DNA from: a virus
Direction: 5' to 3' (one strand)
Virus record (IMG/VR): IMGVR_UViG_3300019766_000011
Coordinates: 1-64,000 of that record
Length of the DNA stretch: 64,000 bases
Position 1 is the first letter of the stretch; every line of letters begins with the position of its first letter. The notes beneath the pieces were generated by a model that saw nothing but the letters and a program-made list of their open reading frames with translations, made no database searches and had not been told where the DNA came from. A program made the translations under genes and the position numbers. Below are positions 7,621 to 60,681 of this stretch, piece after piece.

Positions 7621-10491
7621 TTAATGGCAATCTAACCAACTAAGTCCAATTTTGTACTCAGCATCTAGTGGACAGTTAAGTTCATAAAACTCACCAGCAT
7701 CTATAATTGATTGCTTCATCATTTCACCAACCATCTCTGCATACTTTGGATTACAATGTATTTGGCTCTCATCGTGGTAAGTAATAACAATCTCACCAAA
7801 GAAGTCATCAAACTCTTCACGGAACTCTTGAAGCTTTACAGCCTGAGTATCAAAAGCTTTCTTCATAACTAAAGCACCACCAGATTGACATGCCAAGTTA
7901 AGTGCAGCATGAACACCACGTACAGGCATCATACGTCCATCTATTGCTACTAAGAAACCTTGCTCTGCATCTTTCTGGATACGGTCAATACAATCACCTA
8001 AAGGTTTAAGACCCTTCATAATCCGCTCACGAATCTGAGTACCTATTACTGTATTCTGTGCTTCGATGAAGGTAATAGATTCCTTCTCAGCTCTCCAATG
8101 TGAAAGTCTCCAACCACCTCTAAGTTTCTCCCAACCATTATCCCAGAGATAGTCTTCATCAAACTCCCCACGGTTAAGCTTAGCAACAGACCCAAGTTTA
8201 CAATCACCTGCACCAAATATCAATGCGTACTCTACAGTTTTCGTATCTCCTCGTGTTTCAATCCATTCGTCAATAAGCTTCCAAAGGATTGTATGGAAAT
8301 CACCATCAGTTATCTCAAATGTAGTTTGTACATCATTCATCAAGTGAGCAAGTATACGTAACTCTAAACCACTAGCATCACAACCTATCTGAGCCATACG
8401 ACCTTTAACGTATGAAGTCATCACAAAATCAAGTTTAGGCTCACCCTTTTTATCAACTTCACCTGTGTCCACCTCTTTAAACTCGAAACGATCTACGATG
8501 GACTTGTTAAGTTCCACATAGTTGTTTCTCATTTCCTCAGTACCAAAGGTCATATCATAGCTCCAAGGCTCTACACGGTCATCTAGAGGCGCTACAAAGC
8601 ATCTACGCATCTCACGACCCCATCGTGCATCTACTGAAGGTACATTAACTACCCCCGCATGGCGACTACGGGCTGTAGGTGTCCCTTGTGGTGTATTCCT
8701 GCAAGTTATCTGTCCATCATCCCGGATAAGGTTCAACCAACCCTTTGTAGGGTCTTTAAAGTTCTTTATAGCTGTTCTACGAGCTGAATCTACAAAACGA
8801 TCTTGTACCTTCATGCCTAAGTCATTAGTCATACTATTGAAGGATGATTCTGTTAATTTAGGGTTACCTTTATCAGTAAACTCATCAGGTATCCATTCGT
8901 AATGTTTTAAGAAGAGGGCTTTAACCTGATTATTTGATGATAATTCATAAGGTAGATACTCAATTTTAGAGTAAGGCCCCACCACAACATCCTTTAATGG
9001 CTCACGTATGGATGTGTACGGGCCAATAATTGTTTCTTTGAGTAACCACTTAGGTACAGAGGTACGAAGCTCTCCAGCCTTCTTAGAGGCCGTTGTATCC
9101 TTAGTATCTTTAAGATGATCCCAATCTTTGAGAGCCATGCCAGCTTCACTAGCTAATTCTTCGATAAATCCTTCTGGATCATCTAAGTAATGGTTGGATT
9201 CTTTAGCCTTAATCCCAGCAGATTTTAACCAAGTTTTAAGGATACGTTCTGGGAACTCAAAAAGCTTCCTTGGCGGGAACATCAAATCCATTTGCTCCTT
9301 AGCTGTCATATACTTCGTGCCTGTAGAGAATGCTTTATCAAAGTAGTTCTGTACAAGTGCCTTCAACTCTCGATCTTGGCTATAAGGCATCAATGTAGGT
9401 TTACCATGACGGATATCGTCATTATCCCAATCCCACTCCATAGGCCAAAAAGCTTTTAGTTCTGTTACAGGTTCTCCGTTACTTTTTAATAAAGGATGGG
9501 GATCACCATACTCATCTAACTCCGTTACAATTTCAGTAATAGAATGACCCATATCTATTAATGGTTTAGATAAACCCACTTCCATGGATTCTACATACTC
9601 TTGATTATCAACTTTAGATGAGACAGCTTCACTAAATCGTAGAGGTAATTGAGGTAAAACTTCTTCGTCACACTTAGCAATTAGTGAGTCTAATTTATTA
9701 ACAAATCGAATAGCATGTTCTTCATCAAAACCACTACCAACTCGTTCAGCCCTTGCTATTATAGTTGAAGCACGATGCTCTATGTTTAAGGGATTCCTCC
9801 AATCAATACCATGGTGGATTTTATCAGCACCTATTTCATCAATAAGTTCTACGTAGGTCATTACATTGTTTTTAACATCATCACGTAGGCGTTTAACCAT
9901 ATCCATACTAAATACAGTCCAGTCCTCAATACCCGGCTTAGGCATACCATTACGTTCACCCCACGCTTCTAAACCATGAGGACCACCTTTAATTCCCTTA
10001 ACAGCTGGACGGTCTACGTATTGAGTACGAGACATTACAAGGGTATCTATAATCCTACGCTTATCGTTTAGTTCAAAACCTTTATACCAATCATAACTCA
10101 TTATCCGATTTAGTAATGGAACATCGTATTGAATAAAATTATGACCAATTAGAACATCACAACGATCCAAGTAGTTCTTAAGCATAGACATAGGAAATAT
10201 TTTAGTACCACTTGTTGCAGTCCTACGTATTCTGTCACCGTATTTCTTTAACATTTCCTCATCATAAAATTCAACAGCTTCCATGTCATCATGCTTTACG
10301 TCAAAATCAACAGCAGATGTAAAGGTGATTATCTTACCTGTAGATCGGCTTAATGGCCAACCTGATGGAGACACGTTAATAAACCTGACACACCAAATAC
10401 GATCAGCTTCAGGTTGTCCACGGGGAGTTAAGAATAAACCGTTTGACTCTAAATCTCCAAGTGCTCTAAACTTTTTCTTCTTAATTCCCAT
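7621..10491 (-). CDS. DNA polymerase, family A (T7-like), with 3'-5' exonuclease
   Basis: The 956-residue enzyme is longer than T7 polymerase (704). Exonuclease motif I is GDLESNG (D13, E15), with HNFIQYDVPLLNR as motif II. Palm motif A is DASGLELRILAHL (about 705), the O-helix is KTVEYALIFGAG (about 750) and motif C is YHDES (about 907). The O-helix keeps the T7-like Tyr at the sugar-sensing position but has Phe where most family A enzymes have the second Tyr. Extra sequence lies between exonuclease and palm (about 350-510) and holds two similar GPYT/GPYS segments. This is the phage replicase and may use the phage thioredoxin. Confidence 0.95.
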   Translation of the reverse strand: MGIKKKKFRALGDLESNGLFLTPRGQPEADRIWCVRFINVSPSGWPLSRSTGKIITFTSAVDFDVKHDDMEAVEFYDEEMLKKYGDRIRRTATSGTKIFPMSMLKNYLDRCDVLIGHNFIQYDVPLLNRIMSYDWYKGFELNDKRRIIDTLVMSRTQYVDRPAVKGIKGGPHGLEAWGERNGMPKPGIEDWTVFSMDMVKRLRDDVKNNVMTYVELIDEIGADKIHHGIDWRNPLNIEHRASTIIARAERVGSGFDEEHAIRFVNKLDSLIAKCDEEVLPQLPLRFSEAVSSKVDNQEYVESMEVGLSKPLIDMGHSITEIVTELDEYGDPHPLLKSNGEPVTELKAFWPMEWDWDNDDIRHGKPTLMPYSQDRELKALVQNYFDKAFSTGTKYMTAKEQMDLMFPPRKLFEFPERILKTWLKSAGIKAKESNHYLDDPEGFIEELASEAGMALKDWDHLKDTKDTTASKKAGELRTSVPKWLLKETIIGPYTSIREPLKDVVVGPYSKIEYLPYELSSNNQVKALFLKHYEWIPDEFTDKGNPKLTESSFNSMTNDLGMKVQDRFVDSARRTAIKNFKDPTKGWLNLIRDDGQITCRNTPQGTPTARSRHAGVVNVPSVDARWGREMRRCFVAPLDDRVEPWSYDMTFGTEEMRNNYVELNKSIVDRFEFKEVDTGEVDKKGEPKLDFVMTSYVKGRMAQIGCDASGLELRILAHLMNDVQTTFEITDGDFHTILWKLIDEWIETRGDTKTVEYALIFGAGDCKLGSVAKLNRGEFDEDYLWDNGWEKLRGGWRLSHWRAEKESITFIEAQNTVIGTQIRERIMKGLKPLGDCIDRIQKDAEQGFLVAIDGRMMPVRGVHAALNLACQSGGALVMKKAFDTQAVKLQEFREEFDDFFGEIVITYHDESQIHCNPKYAEMVGEMMKQSIIDAGEFYELNCPLDAEYKIGLSWLDCH

Positions 10492-22349: not shown

Positions 22350-22429
22350 CGGCGGTTAGCTTAATGGGAAAGCAGTCCCACTCTTGAAAGATAGGGGGAT
22401 CATTGCGGCTTCGATACCCGCACCGCCAC
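22350..22429 (+). tRNA. tRNA-like element, atypical or degenerate; amino acid not assigned
   Basis: A cloverleaf can be drawn: acceptor 22350-22356 with 22422-22428 (six pairs plus a terminal C-A mismatch), D-arm GCTT/AAGC around a Gly-type loop, and T-arm GCGGC-TTCGATA-CCCGC with one C-C mismatch. The 30 bases between D- and T-arms are too long for a normal anticodon arm plus variable loop. The best stem (CCCACT/AGGGGG) leaves a 10-base loop containing CTTGAAA (TGA in a serine-type reading). The 3' end is CC without encoded CCA. It is either a decayed tRNA or an unusual functional one. Confidence 0.45.
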
Positions 22430-22457
22430 CCTTCAATAAGTAATAGGTACTAATATT

Positions 22458-30057: not shown

Positions 30058-30149
30058 AGACCTATACCTCCTGTAGGCTCTTGTGAGGTTATTTTAACTT
30101 AAACCTAAGTAACGCCATTAATTATCTGCTAAATAGCGTCACAGCTATA

Positions 30150-30287
30150 CTAGCGAGGCTTACGACCCTTAAACCCATCCACAATATCACCCCAAATGCT
30201 AAATATTATAATTAATATTAAAATTATTGTGAATTTCAGAAAAGTTAGTATCCCCTTCAAACGAGTAAATTTACGTAATATCTTCAT
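30150..30287 (-). CDS. Small membrane protein, 45 aa
   Basis: ATG at 30287 behind GGATAGGAG, reading MKILRKFTRLKGILTFLKF, then a pure Ile/Leu membrane helix (TIILILIIIFSIW) and a basic tail to TAG at 30150-30152. First gene of the 24-30 kb operon. Confidence 0.66.
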   Translation of the reverse strand: MKILRKFTRLKGILTFLKFTIILILIIIFSIWGDIVDGFKGRKPR

Positions 30288-30318
30288 ATTTCTCCTATCC
30301 TACGATTAATAATTATTA

Positions 30319-30347
30319 ATAATATAATACTAAATATAATAATACAA
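30319..30347 (-). promoter_or_regulatory. Candidate promoter of the 24-30 kb minus operon
   Basis: TTGTAT, 17 bases, TATTAT on the minus strand, about 30 bases upstream of the small membrane gene. The stretch is nearly all A/T, so chance is a real alternative. Confidence 0.35.
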
Positions 30348-30438
30348 GTAATAATATAAATATAATCACAGACGAAGTGACGAGCGAGAGCGAGGAGCTG
30401 AAGTAACCTGTGATTCTATTCCACCTTTTCCTATCTTT

Positions 30439-30460
30439 CCCCCTTAGTGTACAGTTTAAG
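30439..30460 (+). repeat. 22-bp repeat, copy 2
   Basis: Identical to 23652-23673 (CCCCC plus TTAGTGTACAGTTTAAG). It ends three bases upstream of the -35 of the promoter before the polymerase genes, so it may bind a regulator or phage polymerase. Confidence 0.8.
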
Positions 30461-30463
30461 GAT

Positions 30464-30492
30464 TTGACAGGTACTTTTTAAGGGTGTAAAGT
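30464..30492 (+). promoter_or_regulatory. Host-type promoter of the polymerase-like/RNA polymerase operon
   Basis: TTGACA (perfect -35), 17 bases, TAAAGT, about 34 bases before the ATG at 30527. This would let host RNA polymerase express the phage RNA polymerase. Confidence 0.7.
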
Positions 30493-30526
30493 AGGTTAAT
30501 AATTTTAAGTAGTGAGGAGTAGATTT

Positions 30527-31849
30527 ATGGCGATTTCTAGCCCTATAAGAAAGGAGGTAATTAAGAGAGAACACACGTTCATATCTCAAGAGTATCTACT
30601 TGCAGACCCTGATATGCCTATACTTGAGGCAGTTTGTACCCTATACCTTGATGAGTATCCATGTGTAAGAATACCTTCCAAAATGAGGGAAACTATTTCT
30701 TGCTTTTTAGCCAATTTAATTGTGATTCAAAGGATCAATTCTGAGCAGTTTTTGAGTTTGTACAAACACCGTATTAATCGGACCTTCTATACTACCAATT
30801 TTACGGCCTTTAAATGGAACCATACGGTGATGAATAATTTGATTAAATTACTAGAGAGGGAATCAATTATTGAAGGAAGTTTAGGTTATAAACTAGAGGA
30901 GAGTATGCCATCCCTCTACAGGTTAACAATTGATCAGAAATTACTTGAGAATGTTACAAAAGCTAAGGTAGTTATTAATAATAAAGCTGCCCGGTATGTT
31001 GTGTTACGACCCGGTAGTTATGATTATGACAATAAGAAGGAGATCATGGCTAATACTAAGACTTTGAAAGATCTACCTGATCGTACCAAGAGGGGTTTCA
31101 GCCAACATAAACAGCTGGCCAATAATCTTCATAACTTAATGAAAAAGAATTCACTAATGAATGGTAGAGGTGACGAACTCATACCTAATTACTTGTGTTG
31201 GGTTTTTACGGAATCCTTTGAAAAACATGGACGTATGTACTTTAATTTACAGAATATGCCATCAAAGGATAGGAAGAAACTTACAATAAATGGGGAGGAA
31301 GTCGTTGAAATAGATTACGATAACTGTAGTGCTCATATCATGTACGCTATGAATGGATTACAATTAACAGGAGATGCCTACCCTACATCTCCTAAATTTA
31401 CACGTAAGATCTCTAAGAAGTGCTTTACTGTTATGGGTAATGTATCAAGTTCAGCGAGAGCCATTGAAGCTGTGTACCAAGATATGAAACTACAGCTTAG
31501 TACAGAAATGCCAAACAAGGATAAGAAATTAGCAGCTATGTCTAACGTATACCTTAAGAAGTCCATACGTAGCGCTATCGAAGCTTTAGAGTTGCAGCAT
31601 GACCAAATTATAGGGGTAGATTCTTTTGGATTGTATCAACGTAATGGATTGGATGTTATGGCAATTGATGCTAAGGTAGCAATGTTGGTTACGCAACACT
31701 TCGTAGGTAAAGGTGAAGTTATAATACCTATTCATGATAGTTTTATAGTTAGAAAAAGCTTGACGCAAGAATTAAAAGATGTAATGATTTCATCTTATAA
31801 AGCAGTACTTGGTAGTGAGTACACCATTACAATAACAGAGGAGGGGTAG
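30527..31849 (+). CDS. Family-A-palm-like polymerase protein of unknown role
   Basis: 440 residues. I start at ATG 30527 because GAGGAG lies 8 bases upstream; the GTG at 30512 would overlap that site. The N-terminal 200 residues are helical and may include a winged helix. Then come three ordered segments like single-subunit polymerase motifs: A, VEIDYDNCSAHIMYAMNG (about 259-276); B, KKCFTVMGNVSSSARAI (about 297-313); C, IPIHDSFIV (about 401-409). The T7 RNA polymerase motif C also begins HDSF. No exonuclease domain is seen. The N-terminus MAISSPIRKE is the shared replication-protein motif. It could be a primer polymerase, a template-independent polymerase or an inactive relative. Confidence 0.65.
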   Translation: MAISSPIRKEVIKREHTFISQEYLLADPDMPILEAVCTLYLDEYPCVRIPSKMRETISCFLANLIVIQRINSEQFLSLYKHRINRTFYTTNFTAFKWNHTVMNNLIKLLERESIIEGSLGYKLEESMPSLYRLTIDQKLLENVTKAKVVINNKAARYVVLRPGSYDYDNKKEIMANTKTLKDLPDRTKRGFSQHKQLANNLHNLMKKNSLMNGRGDELIPNYLCWVFTESFEKHGRMYFNLQNMPSKDRKKLTINGEEVVEIDYDNCSAHIMYAMNGLQLTGDAYPTSPKFTRKISKKCFTVMGNVSSSARAIEAVYQDMKLQLSTEMPNKDKKLAAMSNVYLKKSIRSAIEALELQHDQIIGVDSFGLYQRNGLDVMAIDAKVAMLVTQHFVGKGEVIIPIHDSFIVRKSLTQELKDVMISSYKAVLGSEYTITITEEG

Positions 31850-31850
31850 T

Positions 31851-31985
31851 ATGTCAGAGTATGTAGTCGATGAGGAGTTATACATTGGAAGTACTGATGA
31901 AGAATACATTTCAAAATTAACAGAAGATTTTAATAATTCAGAAGACGGTTTCTTTAGCATCTCATTAGGTGATCTAGATGACTAA
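31851..31985 (+). CDS. Small acidic protein, 44 aa
   Basis: ATG at 31851 directly follows the previous stop, with GAGGAGGGG upstream, and reads MSEYVVDEELYIGSTDEEY... to TAA at 31983-31985, overlapping the RNA polymerase start by 8 bases. About one third Asp/Glu. Could be a DNA-mimic or a small partner of the neighbouring polymerases; unproven. Confidence 0.65.
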   Translation: MSEYVVDEELYIGSTDEEYISKLTEDFNNSEDGFFSISLGDLDD

Positions 31986-34026
31986 TCTAGTTGATACCCA
32001 ATTAGAGTTAGAAGATACCATGGTAGATATGAGTATCGAGAAGATGGAAGAAGCCATGGAGTCTGGTACTTTCCACTCTCCACAGGTACAGATGCTTATG
32101 GAAGATACTCTTGAAAAGTTAACCAAAATCTACAAGGAAGATAAGTACCTTAAGGATCTTAAGTACCCTAGACAAGCAGCTTTTGGGATTCTTTGTTATA
32201 TCATCCCATCTGTATTTGAGGGTTACGATTTACGTATAGCTGCCTTGGATGCAGCTGGACAGCATTTCCCAGATGAGCCACTTAAGCGTCAATTGCAACT
32301 TGGTACTCGTATGGTTACAGTTATCCCCGGATTTACTACAGGTTATGATGAACGTAATCATCTTATCATAGAGGGAACTGAAGAAACTAAGAATTCCCTA
32401 GTGGATCAAGCACAGGAACTTGCCGAGTTATACCCTAAGCTGAAACCTATGATTGTTAAACCTAAGCAATGGGAGAAAGGGGAGAACGAAGGTGGTTACC
32501 TCTCAATTCGTAAACCACTTATTAGTCAACGACATAAGACTTGTAGAAATCCTTCAACAAAAGTTTTATCTGCTATTAACAAAATGCAGAACACAGCTTT
32601 CAAAGTTAATAAAAAAGTTTTGGAAGTGGCTAATGCTATTGGTATTGAAGAAGAGAAACCTGAAAAGAAGAAGAGAGGTGAAAAGGCTAAGGCATTTAAA
32701 CTTAGATTGAAAGCTATCGACTCTACTAACTCGGATAGTAATAAAATATTGTCTATCGCCAATGAGTATAGGGATTTTGATGACTTTTGGTTCACTGTTT
32801 ATGCAGATTACCGAATTAGAGTTTATTATTCTCAACATTATTTTAATGGACAAGGTAATGACCTATCTAGGGGACTGTTACAGTTTAGTAGTGGTAAGCC
32901 GTTAACAAGTGAAAAAGCTAAAAGATGGTTCCTTATCAATATAGCTAACTTAGCAGGTAAGGATAAACTATTACTTAAAGATCGTGTTAAGTGGGTTAAA
33001 CGTAACCACGATAAGATACTAGGTTGGGCTAATAATCCTGTAGAAGATCAAGGTTGGAGAGAGGGATCTATCGCTAAAGATGGTAAACCTTGGCAATTCT
33101 TACAATCTTGTTTTGAGTATAAAGAGTATATCGAAAAAGGTGATAACTTTATTAACTACCAACCAGTAGCTTTGGATGCTGTATGTTCCGGTATCCAATT
33201 TTGGTCAGGATTACTATTGGATGAAAGTGGTGCTAGTAGTGTAGCCATGATGCCGGGAGATGTTATCAGTGACATTTACACTGAAGTAATGACTCAAGGT
33301 ATTGATGCTATGACTAATGATGAGTTTAATGAATTTGCTAAAGAGTGGTTACGAAGTAATTTACTAACTCGTAAACTTTATAAAACTCCAACTATGACGA
33401 TATGTTATTCAGCAGGTAAAAAAGCTTTTAAAAAATATGTAAGAGACTTTAGTAAAGAGTTTATGTTCAAAGATAGAGAAGGTGCTATCACTTATATGGT
33501 AGATAATCTCATGAAAGCCATTAACTCTGTAGTTAAAGTTCAAAGGGGTATGGATTTCCTTAAAGATTGTGTCAGAGGTAAAGGGGGAGTTGATTACACA
33601 TCATACCTTGGTGCTCATATAGTACATAAGCCACTTGTTATGTACAAAGATAAAGTTGAGTGCATCGTTAATGGACAGAGATTCCAGATGGTACTAATGC
33701 GTAAAGGTTCTAAAGTTGATGATCGAAAGATCCTTACAGCTATTGCTCCTAACTTTATTCATAACCTAGATGCAACACTTTTAATGATGGTTGTTAATGC
33801 TTGTCCTAATATTAATAGTTGGTTATTGTGCCATGACTCTTATGCTACACATGCTGCTGATATTCCAGAAATGGCACAGCAATGTAGGAAGTGTTTTGTT
33901 GAGTTACTTAGTCAACCTTTACTTGAAAGGTTTAGAGAATCAATGAATGCTCAAGATATTAAGTTACCTGAAAAAGGTAGTTATGATCTTAAAAATGTAT
34001 TGAAGGCTCCTTACTTTTTCAACTAA
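31978..34026 (+). CDS. Single-subunit T7-like RNA polymerase
   Basis: 682 residues (T7: 883). PMIVKPKQW, GGYLS and NKKVLEVAN align with the T7 enzyme. Motif A is DAVCSGIQF (catalytic Asp). Motif B is RKLYKTPTMTICYS, keeping the residues equivalent to R627, K631 and Y639 but with Ser for G640. Motif C is NFIHNLDATLL then CHDSYAT with the second catalytic Asp. The N-terminal domain is about 100 residues shorter than in T7, so promoter recognition may differ. It presumably transcribes late genes. No repeated late promoter was found by eye. Confidence 0.93.
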   Translation: MTNLVDTQLELEDTMVDMSIEKMEEAMESGTFHSPQVQMLMEDTLEKLTKIYKEDKYLKDLKYPRQAAFGILCYIIPSVFEGYDLRIAALDAAGQHFPDEPLKRQLQLGTRMVTVIPGFTTGYDERNHLIIEGTEETKNSLVDQAQELAELYPKLKPMIVKPKQWEKGENEGGYLSIRKPLISQRHKTCRNPSTKVLSAINKMQNTAFKVNKKVLEVANAIGIEEEKPEKKKRGEKAKAFKLRLKAIDSTNSDSNKILSIANEYRDFDDFWFTVYADYRIRVYYSQHYFNGQGNDLSRGLLQFSSGKPLTSEKAKRWFLINIANLAGKDKLLLKDRVKWVKRNHDKILGWANNPVEDQGWREGSIAKDGKPWQFLQSCFEYKEYIEKGDNFINYQPVALDAVCSGIQFWSGLLLDESGASSVAMMPGDVISDIYTEVMTQGIDAMTNDEFNEFAKEWLRSNLLTRKLYKTPTMTICYSAGKKAFKKYVRDFSKEFMFKDREGAITYMVDNLMKAINSVVKVQRGMDFLKDCVRGKGGVDYTSYLGAHIVHKPLVMYKDKVECIVNGQRFQMVLMRKGSKVDDRKILTAIAPNFIHNLDATLLMMVVNACPNINSWLLCHDSYATHAADIPEMAQQCRKCFVELLSQPLLERFRESMNAQDIKLPEKGSYDLKNVLKAPYFFN

Positions 34027-58642: not shown

Positions 58643-59539
58643 ATGGAAGCAATCACAACTAAAATAGGATTTATACCAGCTGCTGAAGATCTAACAGGTA
58701 TGGTAGGTAGAGCTGTTGCAATTAATGGTTTCAACCCTGAATACAAACATGGTCTTTGGCAGCTACCTCGTACCCTTAAAGCAAAGGGTATCGTAACTAA
58801 GGGAGCCAAGACTTTAGATGCACCAGCAGTTGTTATATCAGGTGTAACGGATGTACGGTTATCAGCTACCTCTGGCCCGGTATCTCCGGGTGATTCCTTA
58901 ACTTGGGACACAGATGGCTACCTTACTAAAGGTGGGGCTTTTGCTACAGCACTAGGTTATGGGGATAGTGGTAAGATCATACCTGCTTTCATTTTTCCTA
59001 CGGAAGAGAGTGGTATAGGGGGTAAATACGTTGAAGGTGGTAGATACTCTGATACAACGACTCAGACGGTTACAGGTCCCGATATCCTAACACCTGTTCT
59101 TTATGGTCCCGGTGGTACAGATAATAGAGGTATCGCTACTATGGATACTGAAGGTGTTATAACTTTAAATAAGTCAGGACCTGCTTTTGTTAAGCTACAT
59201 TTTAGAGTTGGTAGAACAGGCGCATCTGGTACTTCTAAGGTGGTTCTTAAAAGCCAAGTTTCTGTTGATGGTGGAGCTTCTTGGCAATTTACTGAGAATG
59301 ATGTATTCAGTGCATCACTTCATAACTCAACGGATATCGAAGTTATAAGTGAACAAGTATTTATCAATGGCTTAGCTGGTTTTAAGTTTAGGACTGTATG
59401 GGCTAGGGATAGTACAGGAGATAATTCTGGTAATTTAGAACCATTAGAGATAGGACCTAATCTACAAGTACAAGGTTTAAGTGTACAACCAAGTGCTAGA
59501 ATGGTTGTTTACTTTGATGAAGAGTTCGTATACTATTAA
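58643..59539 (+). CDS. Virion-associated protein, possible fiber or decoration
   Basis: 298 residues. The N-terminal half resembles DUF2190-type decoration folds (VVISGVTDVRLSATSGPVSP, GYLTKGGAFATALGYGDSG). The C-terminal half is a jelly-roll-like beta domain (FVKLHFRVGRTG, DGGASWQFTENDVF). Role uncertain; it lies after the tail fiber. Confidence 0.6.
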   Translation: MEAITTKIGFIPAAEDLTGMVGRAVAINGFNPEYKHGLWQLPRTLKAKGIVTKGAKTLDAPAVVISGVTDVRLSATSGPVSPGDSLTWDTDGYLTKGGAFATALGYGDSGKIIPAFIFPTEESGIGGKYVEGGRYSDTTTQTVTGPDILTPVLYGPGGTDNRGIATMDTEGVITLNKSGPAFVKLHFRVGRTGASGTSKVVLKSQVSVDGGASWQFTENDVFSASLHNSTDIEVISEQVFINGLAGFKFRTVWARDSTGDNSGNLEPLEIGPNLQVQGLSVQPSARMVVYFDEEFVYY

Positions 59540-59574
59540 TTCTAAAGTTAATAAAAATACCGTGAGGAGGTGTA

Positions 59575-59826
59575 ATGTCAGAACAAGTAGATCTATTAAG
59601 ATTAAAGGAATCTGTGAGCGTATTACAGGGGATGTTAGCTAATCAAGTAATGGAGTACTCTCGACTGAAAGTAGAAGAGTCATTAGTTAGAAAAGATGCA
59701 CAAGCCCTTAATACTTATTGTACTGAGTTAGAAGAGGAAGTTAGTAAATTACAAGCTGATAAATTACAACTTAAAGCAAAGCTAAATTCAGTAACTTTGG
59801 ATAATAAATCAGAATCATCTGAATAA
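59575..59826 (+). CDS. Coiled-coil protein, 83 aa
   Basis: Almost entirely heptad-like helix (LRLKESVSVLQGMLANQ, CTELEEEVSKLQADKLQLK). GAGGAGGTG site upstream. No signal peptide, so it is not an obvious spanin. It lies just before the holin gene. Confidence 0.68.
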   Translation: MSEQVDLLRLKESVSVLQGMLANQVMEYSRLKVEESLVRKDAQALNTYCTELEEEVSKLQADKLQLKAKLNSVTLDNKSESSE

Positions 59827-59856
59827 TTTTAATAAATAACTCATCTCATTAACTAC

Positions 59857-59877
59857 AAGAGGCTTATGCCTCTTTTT
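59857..59877 (+). terminator. Terminator before the holin gene
   Basis: AAGAGGC-TTAT-GCCTCTT followed by TTT. It lies 24 bases before the holin start. Confidence 0.8.
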
Positions 59878-59901
59878 CATGCCCGAAGGGGATTAATATA
59901 A

Positions 59902-60117
59902 ATGTCAATAGAATCACACACAGCGGGTCATATAATTGATGGTGCTAGTGTTGTAACAGGAGTGCCAGTAACAGTGGCTACAGTAATATATGGTATCGAC
60001 CTTGAAGCTTTCATCATGTACGGTACAGCCATACTTGTAGGAACCAGTTTACTAAAATTAGCTTGGAATGCAGGAAAATTCGTAATCAAGAAAGCAAACG
60101 AGTTATTAGAAAAATAA
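59902..60117 (+). CDS. Holin
   Basis: 71 residues with two hydrophobic segments (VVTGVPVTVATVIYGI and AFIMYGTAILVGTSLLKLAW) and a basic C-terminus, the layout of a small two-helix holin. The endolysin-like gene lies on the opposite strand at 60775-61341. Confidence 0.75.
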   Translation: MSIESHTAGHIIDGASVVTGVPVTVATVIYGIDLEAFIMYGTAILVGTSLLKLAWNAGKFVIKKANELLEK

Positions 60118-60150
60118 CTTAGGAATAAAATACATGGAATGTAGACAATA

Positions 60151-60185
60151 AGCCCCACACCTTAAATGGTAGTGGGGCTTTTTTT
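60151..60185 (+). terminator. Terminator of the late operon
   Basis: AGCCCCAC and GTGGGGCT form an 8-bp GC-rich stem followed by a T-run. It closes the plus-strand structural block where it meets convergent minus-strand genes. Confidence 0.9.
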
Positions 60186-60186
60186 A

Positions 60187-60345
60187 TTATTTTATTCTTT
60201 TAACTATTCGCAATTTAAGAAAAGAACCGTGGGATATGACTAATCTTTGGGCTTGCCTTAATGTCATTAAATCCCACTTTAAGTCTTCCCATCTCTCAAA
60301 GAATTCACACCAGTCCTGTACCATGTAAGCGCGCTTCTTACTCAT
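60187..60345 (-). CDS. Small basic protein, 52 aa
   Basis: ATG at 60345 behind GGAGG, reading MSKKRAYMVQDWCEFFERWE and a helical basic rest to TAA at 60187-60189. It has its own promoter-like sequence upstream and lies beyond a terminator. No family recognised. Confidence 0.68.
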   Translation of the reverse strand: MSKKRAYMVQDWCEFFERWEDLKWDLMTLRQAQRLVISHGSFLKLRIVKRIK

Positions 60346-60375
60346 TGCCTGCCTCCAATTTGTTATTAATTAGAT

Positions 60376-60403
60376 ACTATAAACTAAATAATCACTCTGT
60401 CAA
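60376..60403 (-). promoter_or_regulatory. Promoter of the 52-aa gene
   Basis: On the minus strand TTGACA, 16 bases, TATAGT, about 31 bases before the ATG at 60345. Confidence 0.6.
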
Positions 60404-60406
60404 TCA

Positions 60407-60442
60407 TTTATAAAAATCCCTTAATATTTCTACTAAGGGATT
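60407..60442 (-). terminator. Terminator of the lysis/ligase minus operon
   Basis: On the minus strand AATCCCTTA and TTAAGGGATT pair across the loop and are followed by TTTTATAA, directly after the DUF4326 gene. Confidence 0.75.
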
Positions 60443-60456
60443 CTAATTGTTAAAGT

Positions 60457-60681
60457 TTAAGGTTTATTTAATTGACTATCTAGAAATTCTTTAATTATAT
60501 CACCATGGCACCTTTTAGGTGAACAAAAGCATTCTAGTTTCACATCTTCTTTTTGAGCTATACGGTAGATACGTACAACTTCTTTATATAAAGAACAAGA
60601 TTTATCTTTAATACTTTCATTAAAATAGACTTCAAATTCTTTAATTACTTTAGTTCGTTCTCTTTCGGATTGATTATTCAT
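60457..60681 (-). CDS. DUF4326 protein, apparently missing its start
   Basis: The ATG at 60681 gives 74 residues with LECFCSPKRCHGDII, the DUF4326 C-terminal signature. The same frame is open upstream to 60774 and encodes AIYIGRGSPLGNPY, the conserved DUF4326 N-terminus, but has no ATG, GTG or TTG there. The in-frame stop that bounds it is the TGA of the endolysin gene. A nearby out-of-frame ATG would fit if one base were added. Either the start is non-canonical, the gene is frameshifted, or readthrough occurs. Confidence 0.7.
   Translation of the reverse strand: MNNQSERERTKVIKEFEVYFNESIKDKSCSLYKEVVRIYRIAQKEDVKLECFCSPKRCHGDIIKEFLDSQLNKP

What the first reader, a model, noticed from the sequence alone, without database searches (positions are those of the whole stretch)
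30527..31849. Second family-A-palm-like protein next to the phage RNA polymerase
This 440-residue protein has ordered segments resembling motifs A (EIDYDNCSAH), B (KKCFTVMGN) and C (IPIHDSF) of single-subunit polymerases, but no exonuclease and no resemblance to the replicase at 7621-10491. It is expressed with the T7-like RNA polymerase and shares the MAIS tag with replisome proteins. It may be a primer polymerase or another nucleotidyl-polymerising enzyme of unknown use.
Basis: partly seen in the sequence, partly recalled or inferred. Interest (0 to 1): 0.72.

Follow-up and report, generated by a model that had tools for sequence, protein, structure and literature searches.

The report
Mini family-A polymerase, probable origin primer-maker
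This phage gene encodes a very divergent member of divPolA2, a small DNA-polymerase-like protein family described in 2024 with no known job; its relatives sit beside the integrase in tiny bacterial mobile elements that have no other replication gene, and next to a mapped replication origin in a cholera phage, so it probably helps start DNA replication.

Summary
Window 30527-31849 (+) encodes a 440-aa protein with ordered motifs A, B and C. The AlphaFold model gives a right-hand palm (pLDDT about 95 over the core). Foldseek's best PDB hits are family-A DNA polymerases, then mitochondrial RNA polymerase.

Profile alignment matches E. coli PolA colinearly (TGR, QNIP, DYS, RxxxK, HD; 0 of 60 shuffled profiles scored as high). 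It is a member of PHROG 4756, which is divPolA2 of Yutin et al. 2024 (exo-less, no known thumb, function unknown). So it is not a new kind of protein.

New here: (1) the family is widespread in bacteria, inside 6-9 kb tRNA-bounded integrative elements. In 14 of these no other gene matched a known replication or transfer family; the only gene kinds shared by all are a tyrosine integrase and this polymerase. (2) In ICP1_2006_E the homologue ORF100 lies at 58,951-60,618, and the published early theta-origin peak in that strain is 'near the 60 kb position'. (3) The N-terminal domain resembles winged helices (weak evidence). (4) In the window it heads the operon with the RNA polymerase, at the divergent junction.

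Most likely role: an origin-recognising primer polymerase / replication initiator (confidence 0.45, inferred). Substrate and activity are untested.

The parts
30058..30511 (.). Intergenic divergent junction 5' of the gene: AT-rich tract 30290-30380; cumulative GC-skew minimum of the record at 30442. Candidate origin region (inferred)
   Evidence: sequence; gene orientations; GC skew. Skew follows gene orientation, so it is weak evidence; no iterons were found
30464..30492 (+). sigma-70-like promoter TTGACA-17-TAAAGT, 35 nt before the start codon; would imply early transcription by host RNAP
   Evidence: 10 of 12 matches; number of sites in the region not above shuffles
30527..31849 (+). divPolA2-family polymerase, 440 aa
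30527..30562 (+). N-terminal peptide MAISSPIRKEVI, shared with the exonuclease (start 3841, minus) and a 366-aa protein (start 5015, minus); predicted disordered in the full-length model
30617..30931 (+). N-terminal globular domain (residues 31-135), winged-helix-like
   Evidence: weak profile hits to PadR regulators; Foldseek of the N-terminal model lists mostly winged-helix proteins but none significant
31034..31162 (+). long helices (residues 170-212), candidate thumb
   Evidence: AlphaFold secondary structure
31229..31273 (+). GRxY..QN[IM]P..R block (residues 235-249), equivalent to PolA TGRLSS..NLQNIP..R
31307..31336 (+). motif A EIDYDNCSAH (D263; Ser268 at the PolA E710 steric-gate position, His in 68/76 homologues)
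31403..31441 (+). motif B / O-helix R293xxxK297...N305 (Asn at the PolA Tyr766 position, 72/76)
31724..31744 (+). motif C IPIHDSF (D404)
31851..31985 (+). 44-aa ORF, starts one base after the polymerase stop codon and overlaps the RNAP start
31978..34026 (+). single-subunit phage RNA polymerase, 682 aa, same transcription unit

Best explanation
The gene encodes a divPolA2 polymerase: a palm-fingers core of the family-A type, no exonuclease, and an N-terminal winged-helix-like domain in place of a normal thumb. I think it acts as a replicon-specific initiator: the N-terminal domain recognises an origin near its own gene, and the palm makes a short primer (RNA or DNA) there. The phage's own polymerase, primase and helicase, or the host's in the bacterial elements, then take over. 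Shown by computation: family membership, palm fold, conserved catalytic residues, linkage to integrase in small elements, and the coincidence with a mapped origin in ICP1. Inferred: catalytic activity, DNA recognition, primer synthesis, and that the window's origin is at about 30.1-30.5 kb.
For: Fold and core. Catalytic residues invariant. Bacterial homologues lie within five genes of a tyrosine integrase in 42 of about 83 loci and of a serine recombinase in 17. Repeats of the tRNA 3' end bound 6-9 kb elements. 66 other ORFs of 14 such elements match recombinases, restriction/defence genes and repressors, but none of the listed families is a known replication initiator, primase, replicative helicase or relaxase. 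ICP1_2006_E ORF100 lies at 58,951-60,618; [quoted passage not shown] ICP1 isolates exchange the gene together with its flanks as one cassette between conserved ORF97 and ORF103, as expected for an initiator-plus-origin unit. In the window the gene heads the operon at the divergent junction, with the GC-skew minimum at 30,442. Its N-terminal peptide is shared with a phage exonuclease.
Against: Phages that carry it also have their own replisome and may hold 0 to 3 copies, so it is accessory. GC skew fails in 6 of 10 genomes, including ICP1 (minimum at 88 kb). No iterons upstream. The conserved 3' hairpin of the Rhodobacteraceae elements is absent from the window. The ICP1 coincidence is a single case with chance about 4%, and the paper used a CRISPR-deleted strain, so its coordinates may be shifted by some kb. 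The winged helix is only weakly supported. Phage neighbourhoods are variable.
Confidence: 0.45

Rival explanations
1. A repair or gap-filling DNA polymerase: an accessory family-A enzyme that fills gaps or bypasses lesions, unrelated to initiation (one suggestion of Yutin et al. 2024).
For: The core aligns with PolA, E. coli PolA being a repair polymerase; phages carrying it have a separate replicase; variable neighbourhoods (PMC11348598); shared N-terminal peptide with an exonuclease.
Against: No exonuclease; a 6-9 kb element hardly needs its own repair enzyme yet carries it as one of two shared genes; altered nucleotide-selection residues.
Confidence: 0.17
2. A specialised RNA polymerase that transcribes a few genes from its own promoter (the other suggestion of Yutin et al.).
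For: 24 of 76 members weakly match PHROG 414 'RNA polymerase' and 3 match Pfam RNA_pol, while DNA_pol_A is not among the 25 families listed; motif C HDS as in T7 RNAP; mitochondrial RNAP among Foldseek hits; small Ser268 at the steric gate of this member.
Against: The profile score to RNAP is lower than to PolA (32.5 against 42.1); no N-terminal domain like that of T7 RNAP; the phage already has a T7-like RNAP; most homologues have a bulky His at the steric gate.
Confidence: 0.15
3. A defence, counter-defence or selfish-cassette enzyme (by analogy with template-independent defence reverse transcriptases), carried as cargo rather than for replication.
For: Found beside restriction-modification and defence genes, sometimes after an XRE/HigA-like gene; multiple copies and allele swapping in phages.
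Against: In bounded elements it is constant while the defence cargo varies; PADLOC gives no credible hit; it abuts or overlaps the integrase gene in several loci.
Confidence: 0.15
4. A catalytically dead or non-polymerising palm protein used as a DNA-binding or regulatory scaffold.
For: Tyr766 replaced by Asn, unusual steric gate; motif C drifts to YDE/FDE in some phage members.
Against: Both catalytic aspartates, the motif-B Lys and the R668-equivalent Arg are invariant.
Confidence: 0.08

Closest known systems
divPolA2 (Yutin et al. 2024, Virol J 21:200, PMC11348598); PHROG 4756
   Same: Whole-length profile match (E 1.8e-52); palm with A, B and C motifs, no exonuclease, non-canonical N-terminal domain, present beside another replicase. 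The Barba phage homologue by which that family was defined matches P0001 (blastp E 2.5e-4) and is in the same PHROG.
   Different: P0001 is a long-branch member with Ser instead of His at the steric-gate position, a shared MAIS peptide, and an operon with a T7-like RNA polymerase. The published account is of phages only.
Family-A DNA polymerase (E. coli Pol I, T7 gp5)
   Same: Colinear TGR..QNIP..R..DYS..RxxxK..HD core; Foldseek top hits.
   Different: No exonuclease or typical thumb; E710 to His/Ser, Y766 to Asn, HDE to HDS; 440 aa.
Single-subunit (T7/mitochondrial-type) RNA polymerase
   Same: HDS motif C; weak profile matches; mitochondrial RNAP among fold hits.
   Different: Lower profile score, no T7-type N-terminal domain, Tyr639 position is Asn.
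Replication initiators of phage satellites and islands (P4 alpha, SaPI Rep, PLE RepA)
   Same: Works like: a single element-encoded replication protein next to an integrase in an island.
   Different: Those are helicase-primases or RepA_N proteins (PMC7145576); this is a family-A palm. No homology claimed.

Membership tests
divPolA2 / PHROG 4756 | full-length profile match to the family | tested here: met
   phrog_4756 E 1.8e-52, residues 39-439
divPolA2 / PHROG 4756 | palm with conserved catalytic residues | tested here: met
divPolA2 / PHROG 4756 | no 3'-5' exonuclease domain, no standard thumb | tested here: met
   no exonuclease match; N-terminal model finds no polymerase thumb
divPolA2 / PHROG 4756 | encoded in addition to a regular replicase | tested here: met
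   DNA_pol_A protein at 7621-10491
Family-A DNA polymerase (canonical Pol I) | motif A DYSxxE with steric-gate Glu, O-helix RxxxKxxxFxxxY, motif C HDE | tested here: not met
   Asp, Arg, Lys and HD kept, but Glu, Tyr and the motif-C Glu are replaced; ancestry supported, canonical membership not
Single-subunit RNA polymerase | significant match to Pfam RNA_pol and a T7-type N-terminal domain | tested here: not met
   P0001 has no Pfam hit; profile comparison weaker than to PolA
Replication initiator (functional class) | needed for, and acting at, a specific origin | not testable with these tools
   only genomic linkage: bounded elements and the ICP1 coincidence
Replication initiator (functional class) | DNA-binding domain | tested here: inconclusive
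   PadR-type profile hits E 0.02-0.05; Foldseek winged-helix hits E 0.09 and above

The most novel reading that the evidence does not exclude
A winged-helix-plus-PolA palm protein is an unrecognised class of self-contained, origin-specific primer polymerase. It defines a class of 6-9 kb tRNA-integrated mobile elements in Proteobacteria (integrase + divPolA2 + defence cargo), and phages have recruited it as an exchangeable initiator-plus-origin cassette, including the early origin of the cholera phage ICP1.
Probability: 0.35. Interest if true: 0.85.

Novelty: new member of a known kind. Interest (0 to 1): 0.6.

Why it matters
divPolA2 was published without a function. The bacterial elements and the ICP1 position give it a concrete, testable one: how a family of minimal islands and large marine and cholera phages starts replication. 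If right, it adds family-A palms to the protein folds used as replication initiators, and explains how satellites and phages can swap origins as a cassette. It also warns that 'hypothetical protein' annotations hide a polymerase present in hundreds of phage records (278 with one query).

Tried and rejected
Pfam, NCBIfam and PADLOC gave nothing for P0001; the JetD hit of the ICP1_2011 allele (E 7.5e-4, 60 residues) was dismissed as local. phmmer against PDB gave nothing. A T7-RNAP-like reading was favoured first (GRxY, HDS, 24/76 RNAP matches) but the profile test put PolA ahead. GC skew as an origin marker: works in the window and one other phage (minimum within 2 kb), 6-7 kb away in two, fails in six, and is confounded by gene orientation (in the window the skew also turns positive over the plus-strand genes at 18-22 kb). 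Iteron search upstream: nothing convincing. The 3' hairpin motif of the Rhodobacteraceae elements was looked for in the window and not found next to the gene. Direct superposition of D263 and D404 on T7 D537/D812 was not possible because no coordinates are returned. The search for related loci with the broad alignment A1 failed. The careful tree did not finish; the quick tree was used only for placement.

Full report
What is there. Window 30527-31849 (+) is a complete gene for 440 residues. It is the first gene of a rightward unit: the gene, a 44-aa ORF (31851-31985), then a 682-aa single-subunit RNA polymerase (31978-34026). To its left the genes run leftward from 30057. A sigma-70-like promoter lies 35 nt before the start. 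The record is a 69,667-bp viral contig.

Family. The protein has no Pfam, NCBIfam or PADLOC match but matches PHROG 4756, 'unknown function', over its whole length (E 1.8e-52). tblastn finds 102 phage records with it and 278 with a Vibrio-phage homologue, mostly Vibrio, Aeromonas, Shewanella and Rheinheimera phages, ICP1 among them. Those listed are annotated as hypothetical, except single entries called DNA polymerase. The literature search showed the family was described in 2024 as divPolA2 (Yutin et al., PMC11348598): palm intact, exonuclease and known thumb absent, N-terminal domain without similarity, variable neighbourhoods, function guessed as repair or RNA polymerase. Membership of P0001 is therefore secure and the protein is not a new kind.

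Fold and active site. AlphaFold2 with 76 sequences gave mean pLDDT 78.6 and about 95 over the core. Foldseek against PDB returned family-A DNA polymerases (best E 8.6e-5, prob 0.99) and mitochondrial RNA polymerase (E 8e-4). A profile alignment with PolA covers residues 220-427 and E. coli Pol I 652-907. It pairs R236 with R668, QNMP with QNIP, D263 with D705, R293/K297 with R754/K758 and H403-D404 with H881-D882. The score of 42.1 compares with 15.9 +/- 3.0 (max 30.4) for 60 shuffled profiles; the RNAP profile reaches 32.5 against 17.9 +/- 3.4. D263, D404 and K297 are invariant in 76 sequences. Two nucleotide-selection positions differ from Pol I: E710 is His in 68/76 and Ser in P0001, and Y766 is Asn in 72/76. 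Whether the enzyme uses dNTP or NTP cannot be read from this.

N-terminal domain. Profile searches hit PadR-type winged-helix regulators at E 0.02-0.05. Foldseek with a separate N-terminal model lists mostly winged-helix proteins (LmrR/PadR, TFIIE, AbfR2, RTP, ORC), none individually significant. I treat a winged helix as likely but not shown.

Bacterial mobile elements. A scan of GTDB genomes found 167 loci, mostly Alphaproteobacteria, some beta, gamma, Desulfo- and Nitrospirota. None of 14 well-known control genomes has it. A tyrosine integrase lies within five genes in 42 of about 83 loci and a serine recombinase in 17; in several the genes abut or overlap. Many loci sit at tRNA genes, and in 15 of 24 tested a 15-67 nt copy of tRNA sequence (mostly the 3' end) recurs on the far side; in 14 of these, in direct orientation, it bounds elements of 6-9 kb. 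All 14 contain the polymerase gene and a tyrosine integrase (two of the integrase genes, in L078 and L114, fell outside the clustering and were read from the sequence). Their other genes are resolvases, type I/III restriction or MADS/BREX-like methylases, and repressors; no known replication or transfer family was among those listed. This is the main reason for proposing a replication role.

Origin coincidence. In ICP1_2006_E the homologue ORF100 is at 58,951-60,618 of 128,298 bp. Barth et al. mapped early bidirectional replication of that strain (CRISPR-deleted) to a read peak 'near the 60 kb position' (PMC7145576; [quoted passage not shown] By chance a gene would lie this close in about 4% of cases. 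Between isolates the whole stretch from ORF97 to ORF103 holding this gene is exchanged, and the 2011 allele follows a HigA-like gene. In the window the cumulative GC skew reaches its minimum at 30,442, 85 bp before the gene, but this measure follows gene orientation and fails in six of ten genomes, so I give it little weight.

Extra clues. Residues 1-12 (MAISSPIRKEVI) resemble the start of the phage exonuclease (3841, minus) and of a 366-aa protein (5015, minus), far beyond any other N-terminus of the window. In 15 Rhodobacteraceae-type loci a conserved sequence TTACTGGTAACGATAAGG, often inside a GC-rich hairpin, lies 20-150 bp past the polymerase gene whatever gene follows (in L054 it overlaps the 3' end of the gene). 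It could be an origin or a terminator; it is absent next to the gene in the window.

Conclusion. Known family, very divergent member. The best reading is an origin-linked primer polymerase or initiator (0.45). Repair polymerase, special RNA polymerase and defence/counter-defence cargo remain open.

Noticed in passing
window 3841 (minus), 5015 (minus), 30527 (plus): Three proteins (exonuclease, a 366-aa protein, the polymerase) share a 12-residue N-terminal peptide MAISxxIKKEK; no other N-terminus in the window comes close. Possible docking or sorting tag.
   Followed up: partly
L049, L053-L061, L063, L064, L068, L072, L074, 3' of the polymerase gene: Conserved TTACTGGTAACGATAAGG with flanking GC-rich inverted repeat, 20-150 bp 3' of the gene regardless of the next gene; chance about 1 in 1.4 Mb shuffled DNA at 3 mismatches.
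   Followed up: partly
L016 (ICP1 2001) and L017 (ICP1_2011_A): ICP1 isolates carry two very divergent alleles of the polymerase in exchanged cassettes between ORF97 and ORF103; the 2011 cassette has a HigA-like gene directly before it.
   Followed up: partly
L055, L057, L064, L066, L072, L078, L079, L086, L087, L093, L102, L111, L114, L118: 6-9 kb tRNA-integrated elements with a tyrosine integrase, a divPolA2 gene and defence cargo; I found no description of this element type in the papers searched.
   Followed up: partly
L052, L089, L091, L100: Split or truncated copies of the polymerase gene, apparent pseudogenes, possibly from repeated element turnover.
   Followed up: no
W04 (L005 record), W05 (L006 record): Vibrio phages 193E37-1 and 166E36-1 each carry three divergent copies of the polymerase at separate sites.
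   Followed up: no
window 22350-22431: Phage-encoded tRNA-Ser (TGA anticodon).
   Followed up: no
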